Source: Kaistia geumhonensis (lineage in GTDB: Bacteria; Pseudomonadota; Alphaproteobacteria; Rhizobiales; Kaistiaceae). From it: a stretch of DNA of 64,000 bases. The notes under the pieces are model-generated. The model worked only from the letters and a program-made list of their open reading frames with translations. It did not search any database and was not told the DNA's origin. The DNA lies in contig NZ_JAUSWJ010000001.1 in assembly GCF_030815145.1 (NCBI RefSeq), forward strand, positions 124,001-188,000, in the 5' to 3' direction. The number at the start of each line of letters is the position of its first letter. Within the stretch, counting starts at the first letter, position 1. Shown here piece after piece: positions 26,675-54,587 of this stretch. Both the position numbers and the translations under genes were made by a program.

Positions 26675-29600
26675 TTATCGTCGTGATTTATCAGATAGGT
26701 CGGGCTCGAGGCGGATTTGCAAGTCGCTGAGCAGACTGGCTTCCATGCCCTCGCCCGCCAGATTTTGCAGGTAGTCAATTAGGTCGTCCTGGCGTGGCTG
26801 TCCGAATGCCAGACGATAAACGGTGAGACTGCGTTTCAGCCAGGCGAGACGCGCGACCTCCCGACTGAACGGCAACATCGGCACTCGCCGTTCGATCCGC
26901 ACGGAACCTTCGTAGATCCAGTATGGGATGATATCACTGTCGATCGGCGCTTCGGATCGCGCGCGTTCAAACATCAACTTCCACGGATCGTCAGGAGCTT
27001 TCCCACTTCCCCGGACCACAGCAGCTTGGCGCTCGGCGAGGTTGAGGCGCACGGCGTGGCCCTTGAAGCGGTGGACGCGGCCTTCACGCTGTTCGAGGTC
27101 CACCGGATTGCCGGGCAGGTTCCAGTGATAGACGCGATAGCAATAGGGATGGAAATCCAGTCCCTCCTGGCCGACGGACGTGGTGGCGAGAATGAATGGC
27201 CGGAACGGCGAGTTGAACGCATCGCGCACGCCTCCGAGCCGCGCGACGGCACCGTCTTCGTCCTTGTAGTCGGCGAGCCGCATAGCGAAGCGCCCGCGCA
27301 TCTGGAATTTGCTGATGGAGAGGGTCTCGCCATCGACATGCACGTCGTCGACGTCGATCTGCGACGGGCGGATAGCCAGGGCCTGGGCCATGGCGCGGGC
27401 GACACCCATCGCGCGCTCTTCGGGAGGGCGCGCGCCAAGGCCCTCGGCATCGACAAGGTAGTGGGCGTATTCGTCGAGGACGGCCTGGAGATTGTGTTCG
27501 GAGCAATAGACCAGCACGCGACGCCAGTAGTGATCGTCGGTATCCCGCCGTAGCAAGGCGACCGCATCATGCTGGTTGAACAGTGCCCGGAACGACCAGG
27601 CGACTTCAGCGGCGCCGCTGAGCAAACGTGGGTCGTCCCACGACAGCTCCGGTGCGATCCGCTTGAGGGCGCGAAGCGCGCAGACGGCTGGGCTGCCGAG
27701 CGCCACGTCAACCAGCAGATCCGAGAGATCGGCGGACGAAGCGCCGATGTCGTGTGCCTTCACCGCTGCCGCCAGCTCGGCGACATGATCCTGAAAGGCG
27801 TCTTCGCTCGCCAGGGCGCGCATGCCGTGGGGCGCCTCCAGCCAAACGCGGGATCGCGCGCCCAGCAGGTCATCGATCACTGCGGGAGCGGCCCACTCGG
27901 CGCTGTTGGCGTCCGGCTGCGACACCGCCCCTTTGCTCAGGGCCTCAACAGCGGGCTTGAGGCGATCGCTTATGGCGGCGCGCATACCCTCCTGCGACAA
28001 GGCAGTCTCGGTCTCACTGAAAACTGCGAGCGGATCGGCTAACTCGGCCAGAGCTGGCGATGGATAGATCAGCAGCAGCGCGCGCAGACCCACGAGCCGG
28101 CCCTGATCCTGTCGGAACTGCAAGGGGCGCAGACGATGCTGCTCGAAATAGCGCCTGCCGGATGCCCCGACTCCCATGCGGCGTTCAGCCTCGTAGGACA
28201 GCAGGGCCGCGACCGCATCGGGCACCATCGACCAGGACGAAAATATCAGCGCCTTGGTCAGCGGCGCGCCAGATCGTGCGTCGCCGTAGTAGGGCATGGC
28301 TGCGGGTATCCAGAGATTTTGCTCGAGGTTCTGGCCGAAGATGTCGTCCATGATTGCGCGCATGCGGCCATTGGCCGGCTTCAACGGCGCATAGGTGTTG
28401 ATAGCCTCGTGATCGAGCATTGCCGGCCGCGCCGCCCGAATGGCGTCGCGGAGGGTCGCCGAAGGCGCCGCCGCTTCGCTCGTTAGAAGTTGCTTCAGGC
28501 TGTAGTGGCGCATGAAGTTGAGCAGGTAAGGTGCCGATTTCCAGTATTCTATGATTTCTGGGGCATCGAGCGTGCGCGCCACTTGCGACAAGGCCGATGC
28601 CTGCACGAGGTCGGCGGGCGCGATCGAGACCGTGATGGCGGGTTCGCTCATCATGGAGTCGCGCTCGACTGTGGATGCGACCCGCTCGGTTCGAGCAATC
28701 ACTTTGCGCAGGCGCTGTTCGATAGCCTGGCGAGTTTCGACAGCAGAGGCATGCGACTGCGGCAGGGCATGTAGGAGACCACGAAAGGCGCGCATTTCCT
28801 GCGCCAGAGTGGCGGCTACCTCCGGACCGTTTTCGCGACCGTAGAGGAAACTCAAGGTCTCAAGAAAATCCTGATAGTGGTCGCCTTCGTCGGGCTCATC
28901 GCCGGCGAGCGTGAGCATCCGGTAGGGTGTGGCGGAGAGCAGCAGGGTGCGGGCGGCGTGCCCGTCCCCTCCAGAGTAGTCGAAAAGCTCGCGTGCGAGG
29001 ATCGCCGCGTCGCTGTCGCCATGCAGCAGATCCCGGAACCGCTGGAACTCGTCCATGATGATGAGGTCGGGTTGGAGCGCATCGACGCAGGCGTGAGACA
29101 GCTTGGCGCGGAGCCGGGCGACCAGGCTGTTGCGGGGCTGTGTCATTTCTACGGGATAGGCGTCCCGGCGCCGCGGGAAGAGTTCGCAAACCCGTTCGAG
29201 TTCCTCGAAGAGATCGCGATCGGCCTGCACGTCGCGGCGCAACCGCTCGATGATGCGCTTGTCGACGCCTTCGAGGGTGAGATTGTCCACGGCGCGGTTC
29301 CAGCCCTCGACGCCAGCCGTGACTTGCAACAGGTTGTGCAGGCCGCGCGGGCGCGTAACGAGGTCACGCAGGAGATGGAGCAGCAAGGCGCGTTCCTGCG
29401 TCACGCCTGTCGATGAGCGCAGATCGAAGGTCGTGCCTGGCGTCAGGCTGATGAAGTTCACCTTGTTGGCGTCGAGGCCCGCCTGGTCGCGTAGTTGCAG
29501 AGGAACGAGCGTCATGCGGGTTGGCAGGGCCAGCTCGCGCCGCCCGAGGACGTTCAGCCGGTTGAGGTTCTGGGCGGCGATCGCCTGGTTCGAGCAGATG

Positions 29601-54200: not shown

Positions 54201-54587
54201 GACAGTGTCATTGTTAAGCCAGCTGTGGCCGAGGCCCATCGACCGGTTCCGGTGCAGCCTGGTAGTGGCGGGGGTGCGCAAGGCCCAGGCGAGACGTCTC
54301 CGGATACAGGGTCGCAGCCAGACGGCGGTACGCCCCAGCCTCCGCCTCCCGAGAGGAAGCCAACTCGCTTCACCGGCAGCGTGATGATCTCTTCGGAACG
54401 ACCAGCGCGCGAGATCCATCAGATTGTCGAAGCGATCGTCGAGCAGCTCACGACGCTACCGGGGAGTTCGGTGAAGCTGAAGCTAGAGATCGACGCCGAA
54501 GTTCCATCGGGGCTCGACCGGGCAAAGGTGCGGACGTTGGTAGAAAACGCCAATACGCTCGGGTTCATCGAGAAGTCCGTCGAGTAG
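51291..54587 (+). CDS. DUF499 AAA+-like ATPase with N-terminal Swt1-type HEPN domain
   Basis: 1098 aa. Residues 1-120 form a HEPN-like helical domain with Arg93-Asn-Lys-Leu-Ser-His98, the Rx4H motif of HEPN ribonucleases. The DUF499 ATPase follows: Walker A Asn-Phe-Gly-Gly-Gly-Lys-Thr-His (247-254) and Walker B Leu-Ile-Leu-Ile-Asp-Glu (359-364). A Pro/Gly-rich linker (about 985-1025) leads to a small C-terminal domain. DUF499 ATPases pair with DUF1156 methyltransferases in defence loci. The HEPN domain may cut RNA when the system is triggered. It is the last gene of the operon and of the element. Confidence 0.9.
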   Translation: MAKSTRQYVFEGMELLPAALIPFVEKRLESSLKGHWQVQVLEKLPSLRPNSNGEVGWDQAALFNAMDRFWSEAFKAVLGRAERSLVNELSDVRNKLSHNETFSYDDAERALDSMRRLMEAISAGETAEQLSKMRDTILRTKFTELQRNEERRKTQRLEISVETVAGLLPWREVVEPHQDVATGEFQQAEFAADLAKVHSGSAPAEYRDPRQFYSRTYLTEGLSALLVGAAKRLSGSGGDPVVELQTNFGGGKTHSMLALYHMAGPTPVQDLSGLDQLLERHELTVPKNIKRAVLVGTSRGPQDVLNAEGGRKIRTTWGELAYQLGGAEAFDMIAENDANGIAPGSHLLETIFKKYAPCLILIDEWVAYLRQIYRVEGLPSGSFDANLSFVQSLTEAVKASPGTLLVASLPASQIEVGGEGGQEALARLKQTFSRVESSWRPASQEESYEIVRRRLFKEIPGDKFHHRDNTLKQFAKLYRENANDFPQGCADEDYRRKLEKAYPIHPELFDQLYTSWGSLEKFQRTRGVLRLMAQAIHELWMNGDPSVMIMPGSVAVSSPRVEPELLHYLDVTWQSIIAGDVDGTASTPYKIDQSAPNLNRYSATRRVARAIFMGTAPTHQQQNTGLDDKQINLGVVQPGERPAIFGDALRRLTNQAKFMHADLGRYWYSMSASLNRIAADKAAQIETALVLMTIDAELSKYVNSLADRGHFDAVQVAPASSAEVPDEAGGVRAVVLGVAHPHNGREGSEALVEAKDILMQRGSTPRVYRNMLVFIAADSRQLDNLKDAVRASLAWGEIVRDTERLNLTQSDSALAKAKLAESNETMKTRLKEAWCYLHYPAQESAQADVEWVSGKIPAQDGLLARASKKLVAEEGLLTELGPTRLDRDLQKYIWNGKPHLSLKDLREYLNRYIYLPRLKNQEVLIKAVQASVSGMIPGPFAYAERWDEKSDIYLGLAIERAANAAVVIDSDSVIVKPAVAEAHRPVPVQPGSGGGAQGPGETSPDTGSQPDGGTPQPPPPERKPTRFTGSVMISSERPAREIHQIVEAIVEQLTTLPGSSVKLKLEIDAEVPSGLDRAKVRTLVENANTLGFIEKSVE

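What the first reader, a model, noticed from the sequence alone, without database searches (positions are those of the whole stretch)
26675..54587. Two divergent operons around a WYL regulator look like one composite anti-phage system
Leftward: 47-aa peptide, AddB-like nuclease, AddA-like helicase-nuclease, DUF6361 protein, PLD-type protein and SNF2-like helicase. Rightward: WYL regulator, DrmD-like helicase-DUF3883, 1417-aa GHKL protein, 160-aa unknown, DUF1156 methyltransferase and HEPN-DUF499 ATPase. Most starts overlap or nearly touch the previous stop, and both arms share one 128-base control region. DUF1156-DUF499 pairs with SNF2 helicases are known defence modules, and WYL repressors control BREX and CBASS. 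I do not know a named system that joins these to an AddAB-like pair, DUF6361, PLD and a GHKL giant. It could be one 12-gene machine or two systems sharing a switch.
Basis: partly seen in the sequence, partly recalled or inferred. Interest (0 to 1): 0.88.

Follow-up and report, generated by a model that had tools for sequence, protein, structure and literature searches.

The report
Defence hub with exchangeable operon cargo
This stretch of an alphaproteobacterial genome holds two known anti-phage systems on either side of one repressor gene and one DNA-degrading enzyme pair, and related genomes keep parts of that middle while swapping the systems around it, so it looks like a plug-in defence locus rather than one twelve-gene machine.

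Summary
In detail: two divergent, tightly packed operons leave one 128-base control region. One 12-gene machine is unlikely. Left arm: 47-aa gene, AddB-like and AddA-like helicase-nuclease pair, complete Azaca (ZacA, ZacB, ZacC). Right arm: CapW/BrxR-type WYL gene, then complete Hma (HmaA, HmaB, HmaC) with a sacsin-type GHKL giant and an unknown 160-aa protein embedded. In 387 Alphaproteobacteria, 6 of 7 ZacA genomes carry the AddB-like gene; 14 of 17 HmaC genomes do not. Of 80 AddB-anchored loci, 79 show AddA and 35 a close divergent WYL gene; behind it lie Hma genes (20), BREX (6), type III-like restriction (4) or others (5). In 27 two-flank WYL loci Azaca and Hma assort independently (p=0.70). 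An operator-like core is kept in all 35 and the window, whatever the cargo; dyad symmetry around it is clear on average but weak in the window (9 of 22 pairs). Best explanation: a modular locus whose repressor controls both arms, with an AddAB-like pair, distinct from the host's own AddAB, as recurrent partner. The named systems are known; this pair beside a WYL switch was not described in the papers I searched.

The parts
26675..29911 (-). ZacC, SNF2-type helicase of Azaca (true start probably a little further in)
   Evidence: PADLOC ZacC 1135 bits, residues 34-1070 on 4-1016 of 1019; helicase motifs
29817..31673 (-). ZacB, PLD-type protein of Azaca
   Evidence: PADLOC ZacB 574 bits, residues 7-612; two HxK motifs
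31663..32841 (-). ZacA, DUF6361 protein of Azaca
   Evidence: PADLOC ZacA 448 bits; Pfam PF19888 309 bits
32846..36313 (-). AddA-like helicase-nuclease
   Evidence: UvrD domains plus PDDEXK_1; TIGR02784 293 bits, below its cut-off of 860.75; motifs
36244..38922 (-). AddB-like nuclease
   Evidence: PDDEXK_1 64 bits; no TIGR02786 match; H630, D747, D762-x-K764, Q782...Y786 invariant in a 34-row alignment
38919..39062 (-). L1, 47-aa basic protein gene
   Evidence: third-position bias and synonymous excess in ten copies; found in 15 of 80 loci by tblastn
39063..39190 (.). shared divergent control region of 128 bases
   Evidence: three promoter-like sites in 38900-39300 against a mean of 0.2 in shuffles, on both strands
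39119..39163 (.). operator-like element; conserved core ATAAAAACTATATGGACA (1 mismatch) at 39146-39163 on the minus strand, symmetry centre near 39141
   Evidence: average complementarity 0.586 at this centre over 34 distinct sequences against 0.263 (sd 0.067) over all centres, but only 9 of 22 pairs in the window itself
39113..40075 (+). CapW/BrxR-type WYL regulator (likely start 39191)
   Evidence: best PDB sequence match S. maltophilia CapW 7tb6 E=1.4e-62, BrxR 7t8k 9.5e-33
40083..43604 (+). HmaA, SNF2 helicase with C-terminal NOV_C domain
   Evidence: PADLOC HmaA 1601 bits over nearly full length; NOV_C; D...ExK
43601..47854 (+). sacsin-type GHKL ATPase giant embedded in Hma
   Evidence: NCBIfam sacsin domain 76 bits; TmtA model best stretch residues 50-457 only; GHKL motifs
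47851..48351 (+). R4, unknown protein (166 aa, or 160 aa from the ATG at 47869), embedded in Hma
   Evidence: no Pfam, PADLOC or NCBIfam match at E 0.001; eight relatives at 65-69% identity
48355..51276 (+). HmaB, DUF1156 DNA methyltransferase
   Evidence: PADLOC HmaB 1178 bits; DUF1156; DPPY motif
51291..54587 (+). HmaC, HEPN-DUF499 ATPase
   Evidence: PADLOC HmaC 946 bits; HEPN_Swt1 and DUF499; RNxxxH and Walker A

Best explanation
This is a modular defence locus beside conjugation genes, not a single machine. A CapW/BrxR-type WYL repressor binds one operator in the shared control region, close to both outward promoters, and so holds down two operons at once. The left operon makes an AddAB-like helicase-nuclease pair plus a complete Azaca system. 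The right operon makes the repressor itself plus a complete Hma system (BREX-related, modification-based) that has taken in a GHKL giant and a 160-aa protein. On infection or DNA damage, single-stranded DNA binds the WYL domain, the repressor lets go, and both operons come up together. The AddAB-like pair then works on DNA ends, Azaca and Hma attack phage DNA each in its own way, and Hma spares host DNA by methylation. Shown here: gene content, the conserved operator core, recurrence of the AddB-AddA pair with a divergent WYL gene, exchanged cargo, independent assortment of the two arms. Inferred: binding and repression of both arms, induction by ssDNA (published for CapW/BrxR relatives), the DNA-end role of the pair, and the mode of action of Azaca.
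For: PADLOC identifies complete Azaca and Hma. In 80 loci anchored on the AddB-like gene (so AddB is there by construction) AddA is found by tblastn in 79, at 60% coverage or more in 72, several of the rest being cut by contig ends; a WYL protein in 38, 35 of them divergent and close. Behind these 35 lie Hma genes 20, BREX 6, type III-like restriction 4, other 5 (identity of the BREX and type III clusters from one scanned representative each). The operator core is kept in 36 of 36 (0-2 mismatches of 15, L060 with 4) whatever the right cargo, and lies upstream of wyl within 3 mismatches of 18 in 8 of 8 opened plasmid loci with WYL at 60% identity or more, AddB present or not. In L016 DNA homology to the window runs from Azaca through the control region and ends about 195 bases inside wyl, beyond which a type III-like arm lies. 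Right-cargo type needs 8 changes on the WYL tree and 12 on the AddB tree. ZacA genomes carry the AddB-like gene in 6 of 7 (p=1.3e-10), HmaC genomes in 3 of 17. The genome has its own AddAB. Passages read: CapW/BrxR represses until it binds ssDNA (PMC13373217); CapW binds imperfect palindromes over the -10 site (PMC9122588).
Against: No expression, binding or phage data exist for this locus. The dyad is an average property of related sequences; the window's own copy is tied for the weakest (9 of 22 pairs; range 9-18, median 13). WYL-BREX and WYL-Hma arms occur without the AddB-like gene (5 of 8 opened plasmid loci), and 28 of 55 two-flank AddB loci have no adjacent divergent WYL gene, so neither half of the hub needs the other. 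A distant case with WYL divergent from other genes upstream of AddBA (L012) has no operator core. HmaC with AddB is somewhat commoner than chance (3 of 17, p=0.005; 2 of 16, p=0.039 without the own genome), so some preference between arms is not excluded. Repressing a methyltransferase together with its restriction partner poses a self-protection problem that I cannot resolve.
Confidence: 0.64

Rival explanations
1. One composite 12-gene machine: the AddAB-like pair, Azaca, Hma, GHKL and R4 proteins form a single assembly or pathway that needs all parts.
For: Both arms share one control region and are found together in the window, the Niveispirillum plasmid and 6 of 55 two-flank loci; gene overlaps are tight.
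Against: Each arm has a complete named system. Azaca stands without AddBA in the opened Cronobacter and Phaeobacter stretches; Hma stands without AddBA in the opened Bradyrhizobium stretch and in 14 of 17 HmaC genomes. Zac and Hma are independent within WYL loci, p=0.70. R4 is absent from Xanthobacter, the GHKL gene from L018.
Confidence: 0.08
2. An ordinary defence island: unrelated systems lie side by side with no functional link, and the shared promoter region is only compact packing.
For: Defence systems cluster in islands (established); the left flank has conjugation and anti-restriction genes; the arms assort independently; the window's dyad is weak.
Against: The operator core is kept in 36 of 36 divergent loci across exchanged cargo; the two blocks carry 1.3-1.7 bits per column against about 0.3 in the first and last ten columns, though one further block has 1.08. 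Zac with AddB in 6 of 7 genomes is far above chance.
Confidence: 0.17
3. The AddAB-like pair serves the mobile element, for example repair or replication of plasmid and ICE DNA, and defence genes are only neighbours.
For: 64 plasmid records carry the AddB-like gene, 40 of them typed conjugative; in Aminobacter it stands a few genes from repABC beside ScpB-like and AbiE genes.
Against: 8 of 9 opened plasmid loci have, by annotation or window-protein match, a multi-gene defence or restriction set directly beside the pair; neighbours in 27 loci without close Zac and adjacent WYL include matches to Shango, DRT, PtuA, NucC and TRIP13 models and ubiquitin-like genes.
Confidence: 0.11

Closest known systems
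Azaca (ZacABC)
   Same: Three genes in order with near full-length PADLOC matches
   Different: Here it is the tail of an operon that begins with an AddB-AddA-like pair and faces a divergent WYL gene; the opened Cronobacter and Phaeobacter copies have neither
Hma, also called Type-1 DUF499-centred BREX-related system
   Same: HmaA with C-terminal nuclease-type domain, DUF1156 methyltransferase, HEPN-DUF499 ATPase (sections 28 and 29 of PMC12839542)
   Different: A GHKL giant and R4 are embedded between HmaA and HmaB; a divergent AddBA-Azaca arm is attached
CapW/BrxR WYL repressors
   Same: Full-length sequence match to CapW 7tb6, E=1.4e-62; operator-like site over the promoter; stands beside varied defence systems, as in passages of PMC9122601
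   Different: Faces a divergent AddAB-like pair; this arrangement is not mentioned in the passages and sections I read
AddAB / RecBCD helicase-nucleases
   Same: UvrD helicase with PD-(D/E)XK nuclease plus a second PD-(D/E)XK subunit; motifs present
   Different: Below the AddA cut-off, no AddB equivalog match; the host has its own AddAB; the AddB profile has no PDB sequence match at E 0.1
Tiamat (TmtA)
   Same: N-terminal GHKL region, 185 bits
   Different: Best stretch is residues 50-457 of 1417, and the gene lies inside an Hma operon

Membership tests
Azaca | ZacA, ZacB and ZacC side by side | tested here: met
   448, 574 and 1135 bits, near full length, consecutive
Azaca | phage protection | not testable with these tools
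   needs an experiment
Hma | HmaA helicase, HmaB methyltransferase, HmaC ATPase in one operon | tested here: met
   1601, 1178 and 946 bits; two genes lie between A and B
Hma (Type-1 BREX-related) | C-terminal nuclease domain on the helicase, DUF1156 on the methyltransferase; HEPN fused to DUF499 in a large subset | tested here: met
   NOV_C with D...ExK; DUF1156 and HEPN_Swt1 + DUF499; definition from section 29 of PMC12839542
Hma (Type-1 BREX-related) | N-terminal TUDOR domain of the helicase | not tested
   no structure made of HmaA
CapW/BrxR | full-length similarity to CapW or BrxR | tested here: met
   7tb6 E=1.4e-62 over residues 5-284 of 294; 7t8k 9.5e-33
CapW/BrxR | palindromic operator over the promoter of its own operon | tested here: inconclusive
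   clear on average over relatives (0.586 against 0.263) but 9 of 22 pairs in the window; no binding test
CapW/BrxR | release by ssDNA | not testable with these tools
   stated for relatives in passages of PMC13373217
AddAB (alphaproteobacterial equivalogs) | TIGR02784 and TIGR02786 above cut-off | tested here: not met
   293.3 against 860.75; no TIGR02786 match; the pair that passes both lies elsewhere in the genome
AddB with iron-sulphur cluster | conserved cysteines (recalled from Bacillus AddB) | tested here: not met
   no invariant cysteine in the 34-row alignment
Tiamat | full-length TmtA match | tested here: not met
   best stretch only 50-457 of 1417
DISARM | DrmD with DrmA and DrmB partners | tested here: not met
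   DrmD models score far below HmaA; DrmA appears only as a secondary helicase match and DrmB not among the families shown (lists of two proteins were cut at 25)

The most novel reading that the evidence does not exclude
The AddAB-like pair is the amplifier of the switch: it unwinds phage or broken DNA into single strands that bind the CapW-type repressor encoded across the same promoter, so the first ends met by the pair switch on both operons. Evolution then plugs different systems (Azaca or helicase c8 on one side; Hma, BREX or type III-like restriction on the other) into a sensor-amplifier hub that keeps one operator. An SbcCD-like pair in the same place on one plasmid (L111) would be an independent solution of the same kind.
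Probability: 0.2. Interest if true: 0.82.

Novelty: new variant of a known kind. Interest (0 to 1): 0.6.

Why it matters
Defence islands are usually described as loose clusters. Here one operator core and one helicase-nuclease pair recur across several alphaproteobacterial families while complete systems on both sides are exchanged. That makes a concrete, testable case of how an island can stay regulated while its content turns over, and it points to an unnamed AddAB-like pair found beside Azaca, BREX, Hma, Shango-type, CBASS-type and ubiquitin-like genes. It also makes directly testable whether DNA-end processing feeds the ssDNA signal that CapW/BrxR repressors read.

Tried and rejected
One 12-gene machine: rejected on independent assortment and on arms found alone. 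DISARM: rejected, the HmaA model scores far higher. Tiamat for the GHKL giant: only its N-terminal part matches. Housekeeping AddAB misplaced in an island: rejected, the genome has its own pair. Viral origin: one scan of viral contigs with patterns from the AddB-like protein found nothing. A first guess in my notes that the Niveispirillum copy lacks the GHKL gene was wrong: it lies after R4. R4: best of five models has mean pLDDT 72.4, the other four 47.6-52.7; too weak to name a fold, and the fold search never ran. An EVE-type domain for R4 is only a guess prompted by the EVE link mentioned in PMC12839542. The AddB structure job was never accepted. The GHKL protein is longer than the structure tool takes. 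The 47-aa search on plasmids gave 3 records; low complexity may hide others. In the 387-genome operator search at one mismatch there were 5 hits, 3 just upstream of the AddB-like gene and 2 elsewhere, with 4 genomes showing a hit of the reversed control, so a bare 18-mer hit means little; position and recurrence carry the argument. A dyad test with arms directly around the 15-base core was not convincing; the centre scan found better symmetry, but it chose the best of all centres on related sequences. Left-cargo changes are equally many (12) on both trees, so they do not tell with which gene the left cargo travels; these were quick trees of 39 rows with long branches, three rows (L050, L069, L070) with a WYL gene that is not the close divergent one, and five rows left out of the left-cargo count.

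Two-flank counts keep 55 of 80. Of 64 plasmid records with the AddB-like gene I opened 9; of 10 plasmid records with WYL at 60% or more I opened 8. In some searches only part of the genomes is listed by name; the handles shown agree. In the neighbour scan I gave 103 of 105 listed neighbours from 27 chosen loci; two very long ones were left out, the output shows 25 of 76 and 25 of 69 families, and it gives counts, not places. The statement that the hub was not found in print rests on searches, in open-licence papers only. Of papers I saw: sections 28, 29, 31 and part 1 of 2 of section 35 of PMC12839542 plus passages; passages of PMC8565338, PMC9122601, PMC9122588, PMC13373217, PMC12255303, PMC10952713 and PMC12988326; the rest as search listings. 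Blankenchip and Corbett 2024 was not held; the Payne preprint on embedded defences was seen only as a citation; no supplements were read.
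Full report
What is there. The window lies at 124001-188000 of a single 4.59-Mb contig. The host is an alphaproteobacterium: a genome whose AddB place has the coordinates of the Niveispirillum plasmid hit is listed as 'same class' (inference). Family scans rename both arms. Left, reading away from the control region: a 47-aa gene, an AddB-like nuclease, an AddA-like helicase-nuclease, then ZacA, ZacB, ZacC, a complete Azaca set. 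Right: a WYL regulator, HmaA, a 1417-aa sacsin-type GHKL ATPase, a 160- to 166-aa protein without family match, HmaB and HmaC, a complete Hma set with two embedded genes. The catalytic motifs I looked for are present. The 47-aa frame is under protein selection.

The AddAB-like pair is not the housekeeping enzyme. The genome carries an AddA and AddB far away that pass the NCBIfam cut-offs (1247 and 1068 bits); the window AddA reaches 293 against 860.75, and the window AddB does not match the AddB equivalog. In a 34-row alignment the AddB-like protein keeps the nuclease motif set.

Do the arms belong together? In one drawn set of 387 Alphaproteobacteria genomes the AddB-like gene is in 9 (E up to 1e-60), ZacA in 7, HmaC in 17. 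ZacA and AddB share 6 of the 7 ZacA genomes; in 3 of these 6 they lie within 6 kb on one contig, in the other 3 on different contigs. HmaC shares 3 of its 17 genomes with AddB, the window's own included. One-sided Fisher tests give 1.3e-10, 0.005 and, for HmaC with ZacA, 0.002; with the own genome left out 4.8e-9, 0.039 and 0.022. So in this sample Azaca mostly comes with the AddB-like gene, while Hma mostly comes without it. Azaca stands without the pair in a Cronobacter plasmid stretch and in a Phaeobacter plasmid stretch, there behind an IS element.

A recurrent hub with exchanged cargo. An alignment of six AddB-like proteins found 151 confirmed relatives in named genomes; the best 80 were returned with up to 10 kb on each side. 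AddB is present by construction. AddA is found by tblastn in 79 of 80, at 60% coverage or more in 72; in L027 the contig ends, and in L069 only 7% is seen. A WYL protein was called in 38; 35 are divergent and close to AddB, with 104-293 bases between. Behind these 35 lie Hma genes in 20 (in L049 only a remnant of HmaA with HmaC; some others cut by contig ends), BREX type I genes (BrxA, BrxB, BrxC, PglX) in 6, a type III-like restriction set in 4 (L060 has the methylase beside a helicase distantly like HmaA) and other genes in 5. BREX and type III identities come from scanning one representative per cluster. After AddA come a close ZacABC set, a 1113-aa helicase (cluster c8, 13 loci), or other genes. 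Of 55 two-flank loci, 6 have both Zac and Hma, 10 Zac only, 7 Hma only, 32 neither (p=0.17); among the 27 of them with WYL the table is 6, 5, 7, 9 (p=0.70). The small L1 gene was detected in 15 of 80, R4 in 5 and the GHKL gene at 60% coverage or more in 10 (10-kb flanks and cut contigs limit these). Plasmids show the same: a Sinorhizobium plasmid has full BREX, WYL, a small gene, AddB, AddA-like sequence and a helicase; a Sulfitobacter plasmid has a TerB - ATPase - helicase set, then AddBA; a Desulfosarcina plasmid has a nucleotidyltransferase-ThiF-JAB operon, then AddBA, with a 40%-identical WYL gene divergent from that operon and no operator core. Neighbours of AddBA in 27 loci without close Zac and adjacent WYL also match defence models: SngB and SngC (Shango) in 4 members each, single members matching DRT, PtuA, TRIP13, NucC and type III methylase models, among 103 scanned, and ThiF, DUF6791, DUF6527 and multiubiquitin families.

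The shared control region. Between WYL and AddB all 35 loci and the window keep a copy of AAAACTATATGGACA with 0-2 mismatches, except L060 with 4. In the window plus 88 loci, places within 3 mismatches of the 18-mer were only in these control regions (37 hits, L092 and L041 with two each, L060 none) and upstream of wyl in L007 and L010. A second conserved block follows. A scan of symmetry centres over 34 distinct sequences gives one peak, 0.586 mean complementarity against 0.263 (sd 0.067), next best 0.456; the two blocks hold 1.3-1.7 bits per column, the first and last ten columns about 0.3, one further block 1.08. Per sequence the symmetry is 9 to 18 of 22 pairs, median 13; the window with 9 is tied for the lowest, L092 with 18 is the highest. 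L092, L109 and L110 show two inverted copies of the core. Promoter-like sites lie on both strands; the element covers both minus-strand sites and the second hexamer of the plus-strand site. The core follows WYL, not AddB: it lies before wyl in 8 of 8 opened plasmid loci with a WYL of at least 60% identity, only 3 of which have the AddB-like gene across the promoter. In Ochrobactrum the divergent partner is an exonuclease plus AAA ATPase that look like SbcD and SbcC (annotation and recall); in Agrobacterium and in the WYL-Hma locus of Bradyrhizobium hypothetical and patatin-type genes lie on that side; in two more there is no such partner.

How cargo moves. Window and Xanthobacter (L015) are alike at 91.8% in one alignment from 26243, where the fetched stretch ends, to 47823; R4 is missing there and the fetched part of HmaB is at 76.7%. 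Window and Hansschlegelia (L016) are alike at 88.7% from 26622 to 39386, through Azaca, AddBA and the control region, and DNA homology ends about 195 bases inside wyl, beyond which a type III-like arm follows. Right-cargo type needs 8 changes on the WYL tree (shuffled mean 16.6) against 12 on the AddB tree, as expected if the right arm travels with wyl. HmaB has a central stretch without a DNA match between otherwise alike copies (49366-50327 against L007), though the proteins align throughout; I read it as exchange of the target-recognition part (inference).

Mechanism. The WYL protein is nearest to S. maltophilia CapW (E=1.4e-62). Passages read say that CapW binds imperfect palindromes over the -10 site (PMC9122588) and that CapW/BrxR represses until it binds ssDNA (PMC13373217). 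The simplest model is one repressor dimer on one operator closing both promoters, opened by ssDNA. What the pair does is inferred: UvrD-type unwinding with two nuclease sites suggests work on DNA ends. Hma is described as an RM-like, BREX-related system (sections 28 and 29 of PMC12839542). PMC8565338 (passages) calls HmaB an m5C enzyme, while PMC12839542 calls it an N6-methyltransferase; the DPPY motif here fits the second.

Setting. The left flank has ArdC anti-restriction, ParB-type, DUF3363 and TraG/VirD4-type genes, so the locus sits beside conjugation functions; the scanned right-flank genes look chromosomal (sigma factor, enolase-type, GntR, DUF72).

Novelty. Azaca, Hma, genes embedded in Hma, and WYL repressors beside varied defence systems are known. 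The DUF499/BREX survey has no occurrence of AddA, AddB or UvrD in its main text, and the part I read of its section on auxiliary nucleases does not describe this pair. I found no description of an AddAB-like pair as divergent partner of a CapW/BrxR gene in the searches listed under Tried and rejected. Hence: new variant of a known kind, with an unnamed, recurrent component.

Noticed in passing
19578-26275: Conjugation and anti-restriction genes next to the locus: TraG/VirD4-type coupling protein, DUF3363 protein, ParB-type protein, ArdC. The defence locus may be cargo of an integrative conjugative element.
   Followed up: partly
49366-50327: Central part of hmaB has no DNA match to relatives that match well on both sides, as if the target-recognition part is exchanged as a cassette.
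   Followed up: partly
L111:4137-8887: An exonuclease plus AAA ATPase (SbcCD-like) take the place of AddBA across the promoter from a WYL-BREX operon.
   Followed up: partly
L010:4968-9566 and L108:4193-8819: Patatin-type and hypothetical genes lie on the other side of WYL-Hma and WYL-BrxAB, a third kind of left partner.
   Followed up: no
L023:16074-19415: A 1113-aa ResIII/SWI2-type helicase (cluster c8) in 13 loci, usually right after AddA and mostly with WYL (10 of 11 in the two-flank set); only a weak PbeA match in PADLOC.
   Followed up: partly
L054:4464-5429 (also L038, L051): A 285- to 326-aa protein sits in the slot between HmaA and HmaB where the window has the GHKL gene and R4; the L054 copy has no Pfam or PADLOC match.
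   Followed up: no
47851-48351: R4 has distant relatives at 30-44% identity on cyanobacterial plasmids; in the one opened (Nostoc) no Hma gene is annotated beside it.
   Followed up: no
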